A stretch of DNA of 27,266 bases from a virus: IMG/VR virus record IMGVR_UViG_3300036886_000023, positions 1 through 27,266 of that record; one strand, given 5' to 3'. The notes below the pieces were generated by a model. That model worked only from the letters and a program-made list of their open reading frames with translations, was not told where the DNA came from and did no database searches. Each line of letters begins with the position of its first letter. Position 1 is the stretch's first letter. Below are positions 673-27,266 of this stretch, piece after piece. The position numbers and the translations under genes are program-made.

Positions 673-1293
673 GTGTACAAAACGCGAAAAGGGTATTGTA
701 TGACAACGCCCTATTTTAGAATGACGCCTGAAAAGCGCGCTGCTGCCTGTGCGCGCGGTAGTGCATATTATAGGGCGCATCCAGAAAGAAACAAAATATC
801 CCGCTTAAAACGGAAATATGGTATAACTATAACGCGCGCCGAATATCTTGCACTTGAAAAGCATCAACATGGAAAATGTGCAATATGTGGATTCAAACCA
901 CTATAGCGCAGACACCTTGAACTAGATCATTGTCATACTACTAACAAGGTGCGCGGGTTGCTTTGCAATCGGTGTAATGTCGTATTAGGTTGGTTCAAAG
1001 ATGATATTGCACGATTCAAGAAAGCAATCAAGTATCTTGAAAACCCACCATTCAGCAAAATACGCAATGACAATGGGATAGTATGGATTCAAGATGCCGC
1101 GCCCACGCCCACGCCCACGCCCACGCCCACGCCCACGCCCACGCCCACGCCCACGCCCACGCCCACGCCCACGCCTTGTCAATTGGACCGGGAGCAATTG
1201 ATAATGATAATTGATAAACAAACAAAACTATTAAACAAACAAGTAAAACTATTGCGCGGAATAATTCCGCCGTATCTAGGACAGTACATCTAA
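673..1293 (+). pseudogene. Endonuclease VII-type HNH gene interrupted by in-frame TAG
   Basis: One reading frame runs through this region, broken by a single TAG at 904-906. The likely start is ATG 700; GTG 673 is an alternative. Numbered from ATG 700, the first zinc pair is C60/C63 (KCAICG), the TAG is codon 69, and the frame continues with the catalytic block [20 protein letters not shown] (D76 H77 H79, second zinc pair C89/C92). This is the recombination endonuclease VII arrangement, also seen in the intact gene at 18818. After the catalytic domain come a Pro-Thr repeat and a basic helical tail ending at TAA 1291. Unless TAG is read through, the product lacks the active site. It is either a recent point-mutated homing endonuclease or a readthrough gene. 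The cysteines and HNH residues on both sides are intact, so any decay is young. Confidence 0.8.
1102..1173 (+). repeat. Twelve-copy CCCACG hexanucleotide repeat
   Basis: Twelve perfect copies of CCCACG in tandem, coding for (Pro-Thr)12 in the C-terminal linker of the interrupted HNH gene. The tract is GC-rich in an AT-rich neighbourhood. A unit of six bases changes linker length without shifting the frame, so copy-number changes by slipped-strand replication would be tolerated. It also generates meaningless long frames on the other strand (Ala-Trp and Arg-Gly repeats). Confidence 0.95.
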
Positions 1294-1376
1294 TTGTATA
1301 TACATAACTAAAAGTATAATCTATTTTGTACAAAGTATTACATAAGTATTACATTCATTACACTACAATGGGTGGT

Positions 1377-1415
1377 GTAGTCAATATGACTACATACTTA
1401 ATACACATTAAGTAT
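1377..1415. repeat. Two abutting perfect palindromic hairpins
   Basis: The first is GTAGTCA-ATA-TGACTAC (1377-1393, 7-bp stem, 3-base loop). It is followed without a gap by ATACTTAAT-ACAC-ATTAAGTAT (1394-1415, 9-bp stem, 4-base loop). An upstream ACTACA at 1362-1367 can also compete for part of the first stem. Neither hairpin is followed by a T run, so they do not look like terminators. Protein-binding or cruciform-forming sites in an origin or operator are the likelier reading. Confidence 0.6.
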
Positions 1416-1561
1416 CTCTGTAACCTATTGATATATAACAAGTTACAATCTATACTGTCATCATAAAGACTGCGCCTTTGAGCGCGCTGTTAGTATTGTT
1501 GCCCTGATGATTGTATGCGCAATGTAAAAGCGTGGGTATACATTAGTGAGATAGTAATGTA

Positions 1562-1689
1562 TTGACATACTATATATAGTGGGTATATGATGATTGACAT
1601 ACAATAGGTAGTGTCTAATGTATTTATACTACCTTTGGTAAGACATAGTAGGCAAAACATGCTACTAATTCACTAATGTATGACATACT
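1562..1689 (+). promoter_or_regulatory. Three TGACATAC boxes, possible operators or promoters
   Basis: TTGACATAC occurs at 1562-1570 and 1594-1602, and TGACATAC at 1681-1688 as part of the palindrome GTATGACATAC. The first two each contain a perfect -35 hexamer TTGACA. The first has TATATG 16 bases downstream; the second has TAATGT 16 bases downstream. The repeated box could be a repressor operator overlapping -35 elements. No gene starts directly downstream on the + strand, so this remains tentative. Confidence 0.3.
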
Positions 1690-1920
1690 ACTAATGGTGC
1701 AATCGTAAAGTCATATAGAGTAATGACTTATAAGATCGAATATGATCTAGTAAGCTATTCATACCTATCCGCGGAACCGATTGTAGGGGCGGGGTCAGAT
1801 TGAACGATTATGACCAAAATAATGGAATGGCCGAGTCGCCCTGCTCTTTTGACTGGCGTGATTTTCCAATTTGAAATGGACTAAATTCAAATTTTAGCCA
1901 AAAATTTTAACGAAAATCGT

Positions 1921-2094
1921 TCAGAAACCGCGGTTTTGACTAATAAGTAGATTTTGTTCCACGGGCAGAGTTCTCCGATTGTGTAATCTGCATAATGCGG
2001 AGCAAAATCTGCCATTGTAGGTTCGAGAGATAAAAGATTTTCCACAGACTTCACATACTCGTTCATGCTGGCGATGTGGGCGGTGTTTTCCCAT
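1921..2094 (-). CDS. Small zinc-finger-like protein
   Basis: A 57-residue basic protein with a likely zinc site: CEVCGK, then FCSALC about 13 residues later, giving four cysteines in a CxxC...CxxxC arrangement. The N-terminus is rich in His and Arg (MGKHRPHRQHER). Such small zinc proteins in phages often bind DNA or resemble fragments of HNH proteins; here no catalytic histidine follows. I chose the start at 2094 because GGGAGGG lies 7 bases upstream; a start at 2124 would bury that site. It begins two bases after the stop of the preceding minus-strand gene and is the last gene of a three-gene operon. Confidence 0.6.
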   Translation of the reverse strand: MGKHRPHRQHERVCEVCGKSFISRTYNGRFCSALCRLHNRRTLPVEQNLLISQNRGF

Positions 2095-2096
2095 CT

Positions 2097-2246
2097 TCAA
2101 ACCCTCCCATGCCGACGAGCGCACTCGAAGGCCATCTTCTGTTTACAAGTCGGCTTGGCGTTCAACCATTTGGTGATGTTGTCCGCATTAAGGCCGCCAA
2201 CCACTAAACAGGCAATCGCATAGATAATGAGCATGGTCGTGTTCAT
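2097..2246 (-). CDS. Tiny membrane protein (49 aa)
   Basis: A 49-residue frame that is easy to miss. It starts with an ATGA overlap on the stop of the upstream minus-strand gene and ends with a TGA two bases before the next ATG. Its last codons carry the Shine-Dalgarno of that next gene. Residues 1-19 (MNTTMLIIYAIACLVVGGL) form one hydrophobic helix, followed by a polar, basic C-terminus with two cysteines (C34, C42). The helix could be a membrane anchor or an uncleaved signal. The coupling on both sides is the main reason to believe it is real. Function unknown. Confidence 0.6.
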   Translation of the reverse strand: MNTTMLIIYAIACLVVGGLNADNITKWLNAKPTCKQKMAFECARRHGRV

Positions 2247-2557
2247 TGTTTGTTCCTTTGATTGACTCTGAGAATGTCTTGTTCATTCTCGTACTTTTGC
2301 ATCTGCTTGGCCAGTTGCTTTTGTCTGGCCTTCCGCTGCCTACGCAGTTTGATCGCGGCCTTGTTGGCTTCACGGTACTTTCTTTGTCGTTCTATAACCT
2401 CTGCTTTGTGAGTCTCATAATAATTAGCAGATTGTTCTTTAATATGGTCGCTATGTTCCACATAGTACAAGGCCCGGCACCTATGAACCGGAACAATTGG
2501 TTCCTTCTTCATCGGCGCCTTACAGGCTTTTATATCTTCTTTGCTTAATTTTTGCAT
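2243..2557 (-). CDS. Basic coiled-coil small protein
   Basis: A 104-residue, highly charged protein. Its N-terminus (MQKLSKEDIKACKAPMKKE) is followed by a long helical stretch from about residue 30 to 100, rich in K, R, E, Q and A, that would form a coiled coil (YYETHKAEVIERQRKYREAN and onward). The pattern of H/Y/K-rich helices resembles the N-terminal part of phage endonuclease VII-type HNH proteins, but no HNH core follows. It is the first gene of a minus-strand operon, with GAAGGG 8 bases before ATG and a near-consensus promoter just upstream. It may be a nucleic-acid-binding early protein or a truncated homing endonuclease relic. Confidence 0.65.
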   Translation of the reverse strand: MQKLSKEDIKACKAPMKKEPIVPVHRCRALYYVEHSDHIKEQSANYYETHKAEVIERQRKYREANKAAIKLRRQRKARQKQLAKQMQKYENEQDILRVNQRNKQ

Positions 2558-2578
2558 ACGTTTTTCCCTTCTATATAA

Positions 2579-2606
2579 AGTATACTACACTTTTTCTCGT
2601 TGTCAA
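2579..2606 (-). promoter_or_regulatory. Near-consensus sigma-70 promoter for the minus-strand operon
   Basis: On the minus strand a perfect -35 TTGACA (2606-2601) is followed after 16 bases by -10 TATACT (2584-2579). Transcription would start near 2572, directly before the Shine-Dalgarno GAAGGG (2571-2566) and the ATG at 2557, giving a very short leader. This is the best-looking promoter in the window and would drive the three minus-strand genes, probably early by host RNA polymerase. Confidence 0.7.
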
Positions 2607-2610
2607 GTCA

Positions 2611-3029
2611 AATTTCTCGAAATTGTCAATATAGATACATTACTAATTTAGTGAATTATTCCCCCATTGCGTGTGGGTGGATAACTATTTGATATAACTC
2701 CTTATCCAGCATGGATTTATAAAATCAGGTTTCAAAGCCGTCAAAATAAATGTAATTCTTGGCCATATAGTTTAACCAGGAAATATGCTATGTAGCACAC
2801 ATAACATATTTTATAAGGAATAGATAAGGCAAGGAATTACACACTTTTAGACAGTCAATCCAGCCCGAGGGCGTAACCCATTATTGAGAAACGACTTGTG
2901 ACTGTGCCGGCCATACCTTACCACCCATATAGGTCGGAACCAATACCAATAGGGGGTATGTCAAGGGCTTGATTCAATTGTAATAAATATACCATATATT
3001 CTGAGAATTTTTGAAGCAAAAGGGCTATT
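2611..3029. other. Non-coding stretch with hairpins
   Basis: No credible gene was found between the minus-strand promoter and the next rightward promoter. It includes GGATAA/TTATCC (2679-2684 with 2702-2707), a large interrupted inverted repeat (2751-2841), and unassigned sequence up to about 3000 with several short AT-rich -10-like words. It is the spacer between divergent transcription units. Confidence 0.5.
2751..2841. repeat. Large interrupted inverted repeat with nested hairpin
   Basis: TGTAATTC (2751-2758) and GAATTACA (2834-2841) are exact reverse complements, extended inward imperfectly by TTGGCC against GGCAAG. Nested inside, AAATATG (2781-2787) pairs with CATATTT (2805-2811), with a further ATGT/ACAT inner stem around the loop AGCAC. 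The element lies between divergent operons and could be an origin, an operator or the remains of a mobile element. Confidence 0.5.
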
Positions 3030-3277: not shown

Positions 3278-3283
3278 TAACTA

Positions 3284-3440
3284 TCAATGAGGGCGGCGGA
3301 CGCTAAGCGACTGCCGCGAGGTGACGGCGGATAAAGTGATGGGTACACCGGACCTGAATTGACAGGGCCATCTGTAATGGATGGGTACGATTAAGACCAA
3401 AGCAACGATGCCTCGAAGAAGACCCTGATACGGGGCAGAT
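3284..3440 (+). ncRNA. Candidate structured RNA or leader element
   Basis: This gap has no long frame, is clearly richer in G and C than its surroundings, and is dense in hairpins. GCGGC/GCCGC (3293-3297 with 3313-3317) encloses CGC-TAA-GCG (3301-3309). CCTG/CAGG is at 3353-3356 with 3363-3366. A 7-bp stem TGCCTCG/CGGGGCA is at 3409-3415 with 3431-3437. CCATC (3368-3372) can pair either with GATGG at 3338-3342 or with GATGG at 3380-3384, two mutually exclusive folds; GATGGGTAC is repeated exactly at both places. No T run follows, so it is not a simple terminator. It could be a phage small RNA, a cis-regulatory leader for the hydrolase gene downstream or a self-cleaving RNA; I do not recognise a known class. 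Confidence 0.45.
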
Positions 3441-3452
3441 AAATCCGAATAA

Positions 3453-4133
3453 TTGTTGCAAAAGTCCGTCGCGTTTAAACTATTATTCTTTCAATTACTA
3501 AAGCCACTCGGAAATAAAGTGGCCTCTATCGCTGGGTCATATGGCAACCAGCGGCCAGTCGAGACCCAAATGTTTAATCCAGGCGATGTGATTGGTTTTT
3601 CTGGTGCTTGCTTTACAAGCGACTTAGTAAACGTGGCAACATGGGGTATCCCTCGGGTAGATTTGAGTCACGTCGCCATACTTGCCAATTATAAAAACGA
3701 GTTATTCCTTTTTGAAAGCACTACACTTGATACTGCGCCTTGTGAGATCACTGGTAAAAAGATTGCAGGAGTACAGGCTCACAATCTGGATAGAACGATT
3801 AAGGAATATGAAGGTAAGGTCTTCCATTATCCGCTGACCAAACTTATCAATGCTGAACAAAGTAAGAAATTAAGTAATTTCTTATTTGATATGCTCGGCA
3901 TATCCTACAATATGATCGGTGCCTTCCGGGCGGGCGGTGTGGGATTCAGTTTCATTGAAGGTATATTACATAAAGAAAATCTCCATAGTATCTTCTGTAG
4001 TGAGTTGGCCATTGCGGCGCATCGTGAAATTGGGTTAATTAAAACAACTAATGCGGGACATTTCAACCCGAACCACATGTGCAGATGGGAATTATATCAG
4101 GGAATTCTTGCGGGCCATATCAGGATAAAATGA
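3453..4133 (+). CDS. Permuted NlpC/P60-like (YiiX-type) hydrolase
   Basis: The protein carries the order typical of circularly permuted papain-like NlpC/P60 enzymes. There is an N-terminal block FNPGDVIGFSG (residues 41-51), a probable catalytic His in LSHVAIL (H73), a conserved acidic FEST (E88), and a C-terminal FCSELAIAA with the probable nucleophile C182. Family members cleave amide or ester bonds in peptides, lipids or peptidoglycan; the phage substrate is unknown. The start is uncertain. TTG 3453 lies directly after an in-frame stop and has no clear ribosome binding site, while ATG 3570 (residue 40) would keep the whole domain. The stop overlaps the next ATG as ATGA. It opens a coupled operon of envelope-related genes. 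Confidence 0.7.
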   Translation: MLQKSVAFKLLFFQLLKPLGNKVASIAGSYGNQRPVETQMFNPGDVIGFSGACFTSDLVNVATWGIPRVDLSHVAILANYKNELFLFESTTLDTAPCEITGKKIAGVQAHNLDRTIKEYEGKVFHYPLTKLINAEQSKKLSNFLFDMLGISYNMIGAFRAGGVGFSFIEGILHKENLHSIFCSELAIAAHREIGLIKTTNAGHFNPNHMCRWELYQGILAGHIRIK

Positions 4134-5196: not shown

Positions 5197-5912
5197 AAGA
5201 AATCCGGTATAAGGAATTGTTTATGAGAATTCGTGACATACTTATTGGTTTACTTGTAATTTTACTTTTTTGTTTGGCGTTTGGATACTGTAGTGGCCAG
5301 GATATTCGGACCGAAGGATATACAAATGGAGTTATGGTATCGGAACGGATTATAAAACTTCCTCAAGATCAGAACAAATGGTATATCTCGGTCGTGGGAG
5401 AAGGTAAGGAATACCAAGAGATATTGGGTTGGTTCAACGAAGGCCAGTTGAAGACTTTGAAGGACCAAGTTCACTTTATCCCTGTCACTCCGAATACCCC
5501 AATTTACAAAGAGCGATACGAAAAAAACACAGACGGCAAGCCTATAGCATTGCCTATGGTTCGAGTTCAAGATGCTGATGGTCTAGTTGTGTTCGAGAAA
5601 GCCGGTAATGCACTTCCCATGAGCGGCAATGCACTTTATAATGCAATCGCTACAGATGTGAATGGTGTAGAACGGCGTCCATATCGTGATCGTAAACCCG
5701 ACCCGAAACCGAATCCAAAACCCGATCCCAAAAAACCTTTGGTTCCGATCAATGATCCTGATGCACAGCCGCTAGATGATGGCGGGGCACCAAAGGTCCA
5801 AGTTCCATTATGGCCAGCATGGTTAAATGGTGTATCAGAAGTTGAATCAAAAACTATACTCGTAGGAATTCTTGCGTTACTTGTATTACTCCCTTGGAGA
5901 AAAAAGGTATGA
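5193..5912 (+). CDS. Membrane-anchored protein with proline-rich linker
   Basis: Function not recognised. It has a hydrophobic N-terminal segment (about residues 14-32, signal or anchor), an extracytoplasmic domain of about 130 residues, a repetitive linker of Pro-Lys-Asp/Asn units (RKPDPKPNPKPDPKKP), and a C-terminal hydrophobic helix ending in PWRKKV. The ending, a membrane helix followed by a short basic tail, resembles proteins tethered to the cytoplasmic membrane. ATG 5193 overlaps the previous stop as ATGA; ATG 5223, with AAGGA upstream, is an equally good start and gives a more typical signal peptide. It ends in an ATGA overlap with the next gene. It may act with the neighbouring exported peptidase as a substrate, partner or anchor. 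Confidence 0.6.
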   Translation: MKEIRYKELFMRIRDILIGLLVILLFCLAFGYCSGQDIRTEGYTNGVMVSERIIKLPQDQNKWYISVVGEGKEYQEILGWFNEGQLKTLKDQVHFIPVTPNTPIYKERYEKNTDGKPIALPMVRVQDADGLVVFEKAGNALPMSGNALYNAIATDVNGVERRPYRDRKPDPKPNPKPDPKKPLVPINDPDAQPLDDGGAPKVQVPLWPAWLNGVSEVESKTILVGILALLVLLPWRKKV

Positions 5913-6274
5913 TTACTAACATTGTAATCGCTGTACTAGCTTTAGTTGTTCTGTTCAAAGTTGTGATGTTGCTCAAGGACAAGGTTCCTGGAATCAAATT
6001 GCCATCTTTGAAGGCCAAGATCGACGCCGACAAAGCGAAGGTTCATGCCAGCATTGGCGGACTGATCGACAAGATTTATGATACTGCGGTTCTATCTCGG
6101 GAGACGAATGAAGTTCTTCTGAAAGAATTGAACGGTACATTTGAACGTGTACTTAGTATCCGTTTGTCGTCACCCGAAGGTCGCGCCGAACTTGAGACCA
6201 AATTGATTGCCGCGAAGAAGATAGCAGAAGTTGCTGTTCCGCTGGCTGTCAAAGCCGCTGTATTGCTTGCATAA
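5909..6274 (+). CDS. Small membrane-anchored helical protein
   Basis: A 121-residue protein. An N-terminal membrane helix (about residues 3-22, ITNIVIAVLALVVLFKVVML) is followed by a basic and amphipathic helical region with regular K, E and A spacing, and a hydrophobic C-terminus (VAVPLAVKAAVLLA). The start at ATG 5909 uses the ATGA overlap and GGAG at 5896-5899; a TTG at 5894 is possible but weaker. The layout, one N-terminal helix plus a coiled coil, would suit a holin-related or spanin-like component, but I cannot assign it. It is the last gene of the 3453-6274 operon, and its stop lies four bases before the tRNA-like element. Confidence 0.6.
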   Translation: MITNIVIAVLALVVLFKVVMLLKDKVPGIKLPSLKAKIDADKAKVHASIGGLIDKIYDTAVLSRETNEVLLKELNGTFERVLSIRLSSPEGRAELETKLIAAKKIAEVAVPLAVKAAVLLA

Positions 6275-6278
6275 ATAC

Positions 6279-6351
6279 GGGCCGGTAGCCCAAGGGAGAG
6301 GCACGCCGACTAAAAGGTGATGAATTGCGAGTTAGAACCTCGCCCGGCCCA
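6279..6351 (+). tRNA. tRNA-like gene, irregular anticodon arm (possible CTA)
   Basis: A 73-base element. The acceptor GGGCCGG (6279-6285) pairs perfectly with CCGGCCC (6344-6350), with discriminator A. A T arm follows the pattern GCGAG-TTAGAAC-CTCGC. The D arm pairs GCC with GGC around a loop with GG. The anticodon arm is odd: CGCC pairs with GGTG (one G-U) around an eight-base loop GACTAAAA, or five pairs with a G-A mismatch and a six-base loop. The usual T33 is missing. CTA in the loop would read TAG; TAA (leucine) is another reading. The variable region has seven bases. No CCA is encoded. It is either a functional unusual tRNA or a decaying one; the intact acceptor and T stems argue against long decay. 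Confidence 0.6.
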
Positions 6352-6359
6352 CGCTAAAC

Positions 6360-6617
6360 ATGGCACCAAGAAATAAACAACCGTGTAGAAATTGTCCTAA
6401 AAAAATCACATCGCCACCTCCTACAGTTGTGGAGGTTACTATATCAAGCGAAAGTGAAGCAATGAAAATTTGGGACAACATATTAAGTGCATCTGCTCTT
6501 AGTATCGGCTTGATCGAGACTTATATACAACTGGATTTACCTGGGATGAATATAGCATCAATCAGGGCGTTGCGTACAAGGTTGGATAATATCATCAATG
6601 GGACACAAAATAACTGA
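6360..6617 (+). CDS. Small protein before terminase; possible small subunit
   Basis: An 85-residue protein lying directly before, and overlapping by 20 bases, the terminase large subunit gene. It has a basic N-terminus with CRNCPKK, a Pro-rich linker (SPPPTVVEV) and a helical C-terminus. Its position suggests a terminase small subunit or packaging accessory protein, but it is shorter than usual and I see no clear helix-turn-helix. No strong Shine-Dalgarno precedes ATG 6360; the tRNA-like element ends 8 bases upstream. Confidence 0.5.
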   Translation: MAPRNKQPCRNCPKKITSPPPTVVEVTISSESEAMKIWDNILSASALSIGLIETYIQLDLPGMNIASIRALRTRLDNIINGTQNN

Positions 6618-8271
6618 TGAATTTTTGAAGACCTTGCACAATGGAATGTTGGTTGGTACGTATACATCGTGTTCAAGATGGGCCAATAAGTGCCGCCTAA
6701 TGGGAGGTGATTTTCCTGGCGCGTACTCTTGGGAACACCATCCTTGGGTAAAAGAGTTACACGATTCGTGGGCACCTTATAATTATGTAATGAAGGGTGC
6801 CCAATTAGGTGTCACAGAAGTTGCGATCAATAGAGCGTTGTACACACTAGATCAAAAACAACGTGACGTGTTATATGTCCTACCGACGATGTTGAACGCT
6901 GGCCGTTTCAGTAAATCGAGATTTACTGTGGCGTTAGGTTTGAGTGAATATATCCGAAGGATGTTCACGGATATTAACTCGATCAACTTAAAACAAACGG
7001 CGACAAATAGTTTGCATATCGGCGGTGCAAAGGGCAGAAGCAATTTGAAGAACATTCCGGCATCCGAGTTGATTTTGGATGAATTGGATGAAATGGATCA
7101 AGAACAGATTGGTCTGGCTCTTGAACGACTGACCGGAAATTTACAGAAACATGTTTTTGGTATAAGTACACCGTCAGTACCCGAACACGGGATACATAAA
7201 CTTTACAATGATTCGACACAGGAACACTTCTTTTTTGAATGTCCGTGTTGTGGAAGAACAACTGAATTACTTTGGCCCGATTGTGTTGAGATTTGTGGTG
7301 AACATACTACTGATCCGCGATGCAAAGAATCATTTTTAAAATGTAAGGAATGTGGCGGAAGATTAGAACAGCGACAAAAACCTGAGTTTTTATCTGAGGG
7401 GCACTGGGAAAAGACGGCACCGAATTCTAATCCTGATGTACGTGGTTTTCAAATAAGTCAGTTATATAGTTTTACCGTGACACCGGGAGATTTGGTTGTC
7501 GCTTATTTTAGAGGATTCGGTGATGAATTCTCAGCGAAAGAATTTCACAACAGTAAATTAGGTTTACCGTTCGTGGGTGCGGGTGCGAGAGTTACAGATG
7601 AATGGGTGGCGAATTCCATTCGAGATCATTCGATGGACGCAACTCGCCCATCCAAAGGTGGCCGTTTAATCACGATGGGAATTGACCAAGGGCAAACGAT
7701 TTGCCATGCAGTAATTTGCGAGTGGTTCTTCGACAAAAGGATTGGTCACGATTTAAGCAATGCAGCAATTTGTAAAGTTTTGTGGGTTGGAACATTTGGA
7801 GCAGAAGATTGGGACTATGCTTATCAACTCATGTCCGAATGGCAAGTGGCCTATTGTGTAGTTGATGCTGACCCACAAATAAATGAGGCGAGACAATTTT
7901 GCCGTTACTTTAATGGCTACGCGGCGACAACAAGATACAGACGTGGGAAGGTTGCGAAAGAAGTTGTAATCACGGATGAAGACACCGGGGCACCGATGCT
8001 CACCGTAGATAGAAGTGCTTGGCTGGCAACATCACAAGGAAGATTTAAAACCGATCCAACGAGAATATGGTTGCCCCGAGATATACTAGATGAATTTAAG
8101 AAACAAGTTTGCAATCTCGTTCGGTCGTGGAAGAAAGACGATAAGACAGGTGAGGTATTATCGGTCTACATCAATGTAGGACCGGACCATTTCGGCCACG
8201 CACTGGCATACAGTGAGATAGCTTTGCATCAAGCACCGCTTCCTATGGATACAAAGATAACGAGTTATTAA
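6598..8271 (+). CDS. terL: Terminase large subunit, lambda GpA-like
   Basis: 557 residues, a full-length packaging ATPase and nuclease that cuts concatemers and pumps DNA through the portal. The ATPase half has a GpA-type Walker A, MKGAQLGVTE (65-74), a Walker B ILDELDE (159-165) and a coupling motif GISTPS (188-193). A zinc-ribbon-like insert has CPCC (215-218) and CKEC (249-252). The nuclease half has acidic residues in MGIDQG (D363) and VVDADP (D423, D425) and an ending GPDHFGHALAYSE (D530, H534). This combination is the lambda GpA family rather than the T4 or P22 terminases, which often implies cos packaging. The ATG overlaps the preceding small gene; the portal gene starts 2 bases after the stop. 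Confidence 0.95.
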   Translation: MGHKITDEFLKTLHNGMLVGTYTSCSRWANKCRLMGGDFPGAYSWEHHPWVKELHDSWAPYNYVMKGAQLGVTEVAINRALYTLDQKQRDVLYVLPTMLNAGRFSKSRFTVALGLSEYIRRMFTDINSINLKQTATNSLHIGGAKGRSNLKNIPASELILDELDEMDQEQIGLALERLTGNLQKHVFGISTPSVPEHGIHKLYNDSTQEHFFFECPCCGRTTELLWPDCVEICGEHTTDPRCKESFLKCKECGGRLEQRQKPEFLSEGHWEKTAPNSNPDVRGFQISQLYSFTVTPGDLVVAYFRGFGDEFSAKEFHNSKLGLPFVGAGARVTDEWVANSIRDHSMDATRPSKGGRLITMGIDQGQTICHAVICEWFFDKRIGHDLSNAAICKVLWVGTFGAEDWDYAYQLMSEWQVAYCVVDADPQINEARQFCRYFNGYAATTRYRRGKVAKEVVITDEDTGAPMLTVDRSAWLATSQGRFKTDPTRIWLPRDILDEFKKQVCNLVRSWKKDDKTGEVLSVYINVGPDHFGHALAYSEIALHQAPLPMDTKITSY

Positions 8272-26937: not shown

Positions 26938-27266
26938 ATGCTAGGTGGATTATCTTCGTTCCCCCGAAAAATATGGGACGGGTTGAAAGGTTTATCGCCT
27001 CAATCCCGGTATCAAAGAGAGGTAGGAGGAAATCCACCCCCTACTGGCGAAGATTTTGGCCAAGTCCTAGATGAAGTTATTGCCACCCAGACTGGCATTT
27101 TGGATGTCCACCAATTGGTTTGTGATATTGATAATAAAGTCGACGAATTAAAACTACAAGAGGGGACGCCGGGTACCGACGGTAAAGACGGCCAAAAGGG
27201 CGACCAAGGGACGCCGGGTACCGACGGTAAAGACGGCCAAAAGGGCGACCAAGGGACGCCGGGTAC
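26938..27266 (+). CDS. Collagen-like fibre protein, 3' end missing
   Basis: A gene starting at ATG 26938, one base after the previous TAA, and running off the window. The first part is MLGGLSSFPRKIWDGLKGLS, then a Pro-rich segment and a coiled-coil-like helix (EVIATQTGILDVHQLVCDID, then NKVDELKLQ). It is followed by Gly-X-Y collagen-like repeats of 15 residues (GTPGTDGKDGQKGDQ). Such proteins form trimeric fibres in phage tails; the helix before the repeats may be the trimerisation start. The far end, which would hold the receptor-binding domain, is not in the window. Confidence 0.85.
   Translation, partial: MLGGLSSFPRKIWDGLKGLSPQSRYQREVGGNPPPTGEDFGQVLDEVIATQTGILDVHQLVCDIDNKVDELKLQEGTPGTDGKDGQKGDQGTPGTDGKDGQKGDQGTPG
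27163..27266 (+). repeat. Exact 45-bp tandem repeat
   Basis: Copies start at 27163, 27208 and 27253 (the last cut by the window end) and are identical at DNA level. They encode collagen-like 15-residue units. Identity at third codon positions shows recent expansion or gene conversion. Such arrays change copy number by recombination and also break assemblies, so the true length is unknown. Confidence 0.95.

What the first reader, a model, noticed from the sequence alone, without database searches (positions are those of the whole stretch)
6279..6351. Lone tRNA-like gene with CTA in an irregular anticodon loop
Acceptor and T stems are perfect, but the anticodon arm has an eight-base loop GACTAAAA (or a mismatch) and lacks T33. 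CTA in the loop would decode TAG, the same codon that breaks the HNH gene. An enlarged loop is also a known property of frameshift-suppressor tRNAs. It may be a novel suppressor, a tRNA-like regulatory RNA or a decayed tRNA.
Basis: partly seen in the sequence, partly recalled or inferred. Interest (0 to 1): 0.65.

Follow-up and report, generated by a model that had tools for sequence, protein, structure and literature searches.

The report
Phage tRNA-shaped RNA lacking an anticodon
Between two genes this virus carries a small RNA shaped like a transfer RNA, but the part that reads codons is replaced by a short hairpin; related viruses keep the same shape while the letters change, so it looks like a real RNA family that does something other than translate, rather than a stop-codon-reading tRNA.

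Summary
The element at 6279-6351 is real and tRNA-derived. A phage-tRNA covariance model scores it 32 bits; the next best place in the window scores 9. ARAGORN (default) and Rfam do not report it. Its anticodon arm is not enlarged but shortened. I found relatives of the phage (viral contigs, TerL 55-67% identical; one match in a Planctomycetota MAG). Five distinct relatives carry the same kind of element downstream of a ~476-aa gene: 7-bp acceptor, 3-bp D stem, 5-bp T stem and, in place of the anticodon arm, a 3-bp hairpin with a GACAA loop. A model built from three of them, without the window, scores the window element at 56 bits, above every ordinary tRNA tested (best 47.6). Over six sequences all 108 base-pair cells are paired and nine of 18 pairs show compensatory change. 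The window copy has GACTAAAA in the loop and A56 in the T loop, and sits elsewhere: inserted between two genes that lie 4-5 nt apart in its two closest relatives. A suppressor or frameshift tRNA is not supported. Most likely it is a non-decoding tRNA-like RNA (possibly a decaying copy), processed from the operon transcript; the function is inferred only.

The parts
6279..6351 (+). tRNA-like element, whole (four helices, discriminator A6351, no encoded CCA: ACGC follows)
   Evidence: sequence; CM R1 32.2 bits; CM R2 (built without it) 56.0 bits
6279..6285 (+). acceptor stem 5' strand GGGCCGG, pairs with 6344-6350 CCGGCCC (7/7)
6288..6302 (+). D arm GCC-CAAGGGAGA-GGC (3 bp, GG in loop)
   Evidence: same D-arm motif TAGCCCAANGNAGAGGC in L041 and L046
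6305..6318 (+). mini-hairpin in place of the anticodon arm: GCC-GACTAAAA-GGT (a fourth pair C6304-G6319 is possible); relatives have GCA-GACAA-TGC, CCC-GACAA-GGG, CCT-GACAA-GGG
6327..6343 (+). T arm GCGAG-TTAGAAC-CTCGC (5/5 pairs; A56 instead of C56)
6344..6350 (+). acceptor stem 3' strand CCGGCCC
5894..6274 (+). upstream gene w5894 (126 aa from TTG 5894; ATG at 5909 has the better Shine-Dalgarno), stop TAA 4 nt before the element
   Evidence: homologs in most relatives
6360..6617 (+). downstream gene w6360 (85 aa, CRNCP protein, possibly small terminase by position), ATG 8 nt after the element, no Shine-Dalgarno (-1.7 kcal/mol)
6598..8271 (+). terminase large subunit (GpA type), used to find the relatives
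   Evidence: Pfam PF05876 2.5e-31

Best explanation
The element is a non-decoding tRNA-like RNA. It belongs to a family found in this phage lineage in which the acceptor, D and T arms of a tRNA are kept and the anticodon arm is replaced by a short hairpin with a GAC..AA loop (GACAA in the relatives). Shown by computation: the tRNA fold, the family, the compensatory changes, the absence of a usable anticodon in the family, and the position between co-directional genes. Inferred: it is transcribed with the operon; RNase P recognises the stacked acceptor/T arm (it does not need an anticodon) and cuts at G6279, 4 nt after the stop codon of the upstream gene; a 3' processing enzyme trims near A6351; this releases a stable ~72-nt RNA and separates the flanking messages. 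The boxB-like GACAA loop would be the place where a protein binds, in the relatives at least. The window copy is a member at a new intergenic site, with a 3-nt insertion in the loop.
For: CM R2, built only from L041, L046 and L047, gives the window 56.0 bits, E = 2.2e-14, above every ordinary tRNA tested (best Myrna tRNA-Leu 47.6, GiJojo tRNA-Leu 43.8). R2 finds further members in whole relative records: L255 78.8 and L256 74.1 bits, each directly behind the same ~476-aa gene, as are L041 and L047; in L046 an HNH gene lies between. MAFFT, unguided, aligns window GAC-TAA-AA with GAC---AA. A8: 108/108 cells paired, 9/18 pairs with changes on both sides, 0/500 shuffles reach the observed pairing or covariation values (number of pair types is not unusual); RNAalifold predicts the same helices. 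L046 vs L041: 12 of 14 differences are in paired sites and keep every pair (P about 5e-6 under random substitution), while the neighbouring protein is 57.8% identical. A GAC..AA loop on a 3-bp stem at the right offset occurs in 0.07% of shuffles of the window's own middle and such a loop in 1 of 360 ordinary tRNAs. GACAA is the P22 boxB pentaloop with GNRA-like fold (PMC12550061).
Against: The window copy is the most divergent member: 3-nt loop insertion, A56, no conservation of the site in the two closest relatives, and a different location from all other members. The family is small (five distinct relatives plus the window); other copies are degraded (L257, L258/L259). Phage tRNA-Leu of the GiJojo/Myrna type also score 44-48 bits with R2, so descent from such a tRNA with parallel arm loss is not excluded. 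Processing, expression and protein binding are inferred; cutting here would leave the downstream gene almost leaderless and without a Shine-Dalgarno.
Confidence: 0.55

Rival explanations
1. A decaying copy: a phage tRNA or a member of the mini-hairpin family was inserted between the two genes in this lineage and is drifting without function.
For: A56 and the 3-nt loop insertion are unique to this copy; the two nearest relatives have an empty site with 4-5 nt between the genes; degraded members exist in other records (L257, L258); R1 score 32 bits is at the low end of real tRNAs.
Against: All 18 pairs of the four helices are intact in the window copy, and both odd features lie in loops; a drifting 72-mer should also lose stem pairs.
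Confidence: 0.3
2. An amber-suppressor tRNA (anticodon CTA) that reads the TAG in the endonuclease VII gene at 904-906.
For: CTA is in the loop; that TAG is the only one of 30 gene stops in the window that is TAG, and the frame goes on across it.
Against: No T33 in any register, arm one base short, A56; none of the other genes has an in-frame TAG; relatives' elements have GACAA with no CTA; the TAG sits in a homing-type endonuclease gene, a class that often decays.
Confidence: 0.04
3. A +1 frameshift-suppressor tRNA with an expanded anticodon loop.
For: Eight unpaired bases in the predicted loop.
Against: Such tRNAs keep a 5-bp stem with an 8-nt loop (18 nt; general knowledge); here the whole arm is 16 nt or a 3-bp hairpin.
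Confidence: 0.01
4. A tRNA-derived attachment site or gene fragment left by integration.
For: tRNA fragments at integration sites are common (PMC9897764).
Against: The element is complete from G1 to A73 with both acceptor strands, lies inside the structural gene cluster next to the terminase, and comparison with the empty site in relatives shows a gain of little more than the element.
Confidence: 0.03

Closest known systems
Phage tRNA-Leu genes of the GiJojo / Myrna type
   Same: D arm TAGCCCAA..AGAGGC, similar acceptor and T stems, class-I length; best-scoring ordinary tRNAs with R2
   Different: They have a full anticodon arm and are annotated as tRNAs; the family here has a mini-hairpin and no anticodon
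tRNA-like stable RNAs of phage T5 (RNA1, RNA2, RNA3)
   Same: Phage-encoded tRNA-like RNAs of unknown function, as annotated in AY543070
   Different: No relation shown: parts of RNA1 and RNA2 score only 13-18 bits even with the general model R1
tmRNA tRNA-like domain
   Same: Acceptor and T arm without an anticodon (PMC2481249; general knowledge)
   Different: No tag-coding part; Rfam tmRNA models do not match the window
mascRNA / tRNA punctuation (RNase P and Z processing of tRNA-like structures in longer transcripts)
   Same: tRNA-shaped element inside a longer transcript, proposed processing route (from memory, a lead only)
   Different: Processing not tested here; phage, not nuclear or mitochondrial
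P22 boxB hairpin
   Same: GACAA pentaloop on a short stem (PMC12550061)
   Different: boxB is a free hairpin in nut sites; here the loop caps the third arm of a tRNA fold, and the window copy has GACTAAAA

Membership tests
GACAA mini-hairpin tRNA-like family (defined here) | 7-bp acceptor, TA linker, 3-bp D stem, 2-nt linker, 3-bp hairpin, 8-9 nt linker, 5-bp T stem with 7-nt loop | tested here: met
   alignment of the window to R2 end to end, 56.0 bits; all pairs formed
GACAA mini-hairpin tRNA-like family (defined here) | loop GACAA | tested here: inconclusive
   window has GAC-TAA-AA, a 3-nt insertion
GACAA mini-hairpin tRNA-like family (defined here) | location downstream of the ~476-aa gene (seen in all other members, not taken as defining) | tested here: not met
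   window element lies between w5894 and w6360; no ORF like the 476-aa protein is in the 27-kb fragment's ORF list
functional elongator tRNA | 5-bp anticodon stem, 7-nt loop, T33 | tested here: not met
functional elongator tRNA | C56 and T-loop consensus TTCRANY | tested here: not met
   TTAGAAC, A56
functional elongator tRNA | covariance score over the Rfam tRNA gathering score | tested here: not met
   RF00005 no match
amber-suppressor tRNA | anticodon CTA at 34-36 after T33 | tested here: not met
amber-suppressor tRNA | in-frame TAG in several genes of the phage | tested here: not met
   only the endonuclease VII gene
+1 frameshift-suppressor tRNA | 5-bp stem with 8-nt anticodon loop | tested here: not met
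   16-nt arm
processed by RNase P / RNase Z | cleavage at the acceptor ends | not testable with these tools
   needs RNA sequencing or an in vitro assay

The most novel reading that the evidence does not exclude
Tailed phages carry a widespread, so far undescribed class of tRNA-shaped RNAs from which the anticodon arm has been removed or replaced by a mini-hairpin. Besides the covarying GACAA family in this lineage, a scan for D and T arms too close together hit at least 119 stretches in viral contigs; 51 of the 80 examined keep at least 6 of 7 acceptor pairs and the length of the middle is bimodal (peak at 8 nt, again at 16-19). They would be non-decoding RNAs for processing, decoy or protein binding.
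Probability: 0.45. Interest if true: 0.75.

Novelty: new variant of a known kind. Interest (0 to 1): 0.6.

Why it matters
Phage tRNA genes are usually read as helpers of translation or as escapes from anticodon nucleases. A covarying tRNA fold with the codon-reading arm replaced by a boxB-like loop cannot decode, so it points to another use of the tRNA shape in phages. Standard tRNA finders and Rfam miss these elements, so they are likely under-annotated. The models and coordinates given here make the question testable by small-RNA sequencing and RNase P assays.

Tried and rejected
Single-protein searches with TerL, coat and tape-measure proteins found no relatives; distant phage TerLs were too divergent for an alignment search; a hand-made TerL motif pattern worked. 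blastn of the region or element against named phages gave nothing useful. Suppressor hypothesis: checked stop usage and in-frame TAGs, rejected. Genome-wide TAG recoding: rejected, same calls. The host as source: one related Planctomycetota genome has no good match, and a strict family pattern finds none in 392 Planctomycetota genomes (exact pattern only, and it requires GACAA, so weak evidence). Rfam: no family for the window; for the relatives only L251 (the L041 element), below the gathering score. Literature: no description of anticodon-less phage tRNA-like RNAs found in the open-access library; subscription papers were not searched, so novelty is not certain.

Full report
OBSERVATION. It folds as a cloverleaf, -31 kcal/mol, z -3.1. 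Acceptor and T stem in tRNA geometry occur once in the window and 0 times in 48 Mb of Markov-1 sequence. ARAGORN finds no tRNA in the window; in pseudogene mode it lists this one as 'Pyl|Leu(ctaa)'. Rfam has no match at the gathering score or, for the tRNA family, even at E = 10. A covariance model built from 31 phage tRNAs (R1) gives it 32.2 bits, E = 1.5e-8 for the window, next best 9.3; phage tRNAs from T5 and GiJojo score roughly 26-82 with it, many of them being training sequences. So it is tRNA-derived, but aberrant. Two corrections: the arm is shorter, not longer, than canonical (16 nt with a 4-bp stem, against 17), and position 56 is A.

SURROUNDINGS. The window is a whole IMG/VR record of 27,266 bases of a tailed phage with GpA-type terminase, P22-like coat protein and many HNH / endonuclease VII genes. 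The element lies 4 nt after the stop of w5894 and 8 nt before the ATG of w6360, all on the same strand. w6360 has no Shine-Dalgarno, unlike most genes here. Of 30 gene stops, 18 are TAA, 11 TGA, and the only TAG is the one inside the endonuclease VII frame; no other apparent gene has an in-frame TAG. This does not suggest a suppressor system.

RELATIVES. A TerL motif pattern found two relatives (TerL 62% and 51%), and their alignment brought in 80 viral loci at 55-67% TerL identity and a Planctomycetota MAG contig. Gene order w4633-w5193-w5894-(thioredoxin)-w6360-TerL is shared by many. In the two closest, L014 and L015, w5894 and w6360 are adjacent with 4-5 nt between stop and start (TAA-GACC-ATG; TAA-ATCTC-ATG); the window has 85 nt there, almost all of it the element. 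L012 has a thioredoxin-like gene in that place. So the element is a precise insertion (or is lost in the others) and is not conserved at this site.

A FAMILY ELSEWHERE IN THE SAME PHAGES. R1 found tRNA-like elements missed by ARAGORN in L041 and L046. Both lie downstream of a ~476-aa gene without Pfam match. Comparing the two: 14 differences, 12 in paired positions with every pair kept (P about 5e-6), 2 in 39 unpaired positions, though the neighbouring proteins are only 57.8% identical. A third copy, missed by R1, follows the same gene in L047. In these, the anticodon arm is a 3-bp hairpin with a GACAA loop (GCA-GACAA-TGC, CCC-GACAA-GGG). MAFFT aligns the window as GAC-TAA-AA without guidance. 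A relaxed descriptor run over 912 kb finds only window, L041, L046, L047 and two ordinary tRNAs, and nothing in a Markov control.

LEAVE-OUT TEST. Model R2, built from L041, L046 and L047 only, scores the window at 56.0 bits (E 2.2e-14), with the TAA shown as an insertion; ordinary tRNAs from T5, GiJojo, Myrna and a tRNA-rich relative score at most 47.6. In the whole records of 43 relatives R2 finds L041, L046, L098 (near-identical to L046), L047 and two more, L255 (78.8) and L256 (74.1), again directly behind the ~476-aa gene, and degraded copies L257 and L258/L259. For the six distinct sequences all 108 cells pair, nine pairs show two-sided changes, and slid structures drop to 33-47% paired. 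The hairpin itself covaries (C-G, G-C, G-U; C-G, A-U, U-G). Under shuffling of the window's own middle, a GAC..AA loop on a 3-bp stem at that offset comes up in 0.07% of cases; this figure was computed after the motif was seen and is therefore only a guide. Rfam does not hold the family: only one member reaches 26.9 bits with the tRNA model, below its cut-off of 29.

WIDER PATTERN. Two other elements in relatives' records have an even plainer loss: L106 CCGG-CAGG-CCGG (52 bits with R1) and L111 CGGCC-GGA-GGCCG. Of 80 examined (some are duplicates), 37 have 7/7 and 14 have 6/7 acceptor pairs; the middle is bimodal in length (7-11 and 15-19 nt, peak at 8). The upper peak in part reflects the cut of the pattern at 22 nt. 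Rfam's tRNA model scores several at 41-53 bits and in L206 one follows a GOLLD RNA by 3 nt. About a third lack a good acceptor stem and are probably fragments. No control scan with normal spacing was possible.

HOW IT WORKS. Shown: tRNA fold, family, covariation, no anticodon, intergenic position in a gene run. Inferred, in order of confidence: co-transcription with the operon; cutting by RNase P at G6279, because that enzyme reads the acceptor/T stack (established knowledge); release of a stable RNA; a protein-binding role of the GACAA loop, known as the P22 boxB pentaloop with a GNRA-like fold (PMC12550061). For the window copy decay is the main rival: A56, the loop insertion, and the empty site in the nearest relatives. 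I put membership in a non-decoding tRNA-like family at about 0.8, function in this copy at about 0.55, and the RNase P processing step at about 0.35.

KNOWN? Phage tRNAs, T5 tRNA-like stable RNAs, tmRNA and viral tRNA-like structures are known kinds. I found no open-access description of this family or of anticodon-less phage tRNA-like RNAs; that is not proof of novelty.

Noticed in passing
window 673-1293: Endonuclease VII / HNH frame broken by a TAG at 904-906 and carrying a (CCCACG)n tract coding for a Pro-Thr repeat; the frame is intact on both sides.
   Followed up: partly
L133, L134, L151, L159, L169, L172, L195, L160 and others: Three-armed tRNA-like elements in unrelated viral contigs: acceptor, D and T arms intact, anticodon arm absent, linker often CTTGGGTC or similar ending in a variable-loop-like GGTC/GTGC.
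   Followed up: partly
L206:6773-7223: A GOLLD RNA (263 bits) ends 3 nt before a three-armed tRNA-like element; GOLLD is known to lie near tRNAs, but here the neighbour has no anticodon arm.
   Followed up: no
L106:1501-1568 and L111:1501-1568 (records of L091 and L041): tRNA-like elements with tetraloop (CCGG-CAGG-CCGG) and triloop (CGGCC-GGA-GGCCG) hairpins in place of the anticodon arm; the L041 record holds two different such elements.
   Followed up: partly
L046:2043-2549: An HNH endonuclease gene is inserted between the ~476-aa gene and the tRNA-like element, its stop overlapping the element's first bases; L041 has no such insertion.
   Followed up: no
window 6274-6360; L014, L015, L041, L046: Most relatives have a thioredoxin-like gene between the w5894 and w6360 homologs; it is missing in the window, L014 and L015.
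   Followed up: partly
window 1294-3010 and about 3280-3450: About 1.7 kb without clear genes, and a GC-rich, possibly structured stretch before the gene at 3453; no Rfam match.
   Followed up: no
window 27163-27252: Two perfect 45-nt tandem copies coding for a collagen-like GTPGTDGKDGQKGDQ repeat at the contig end.
   Followed up: no
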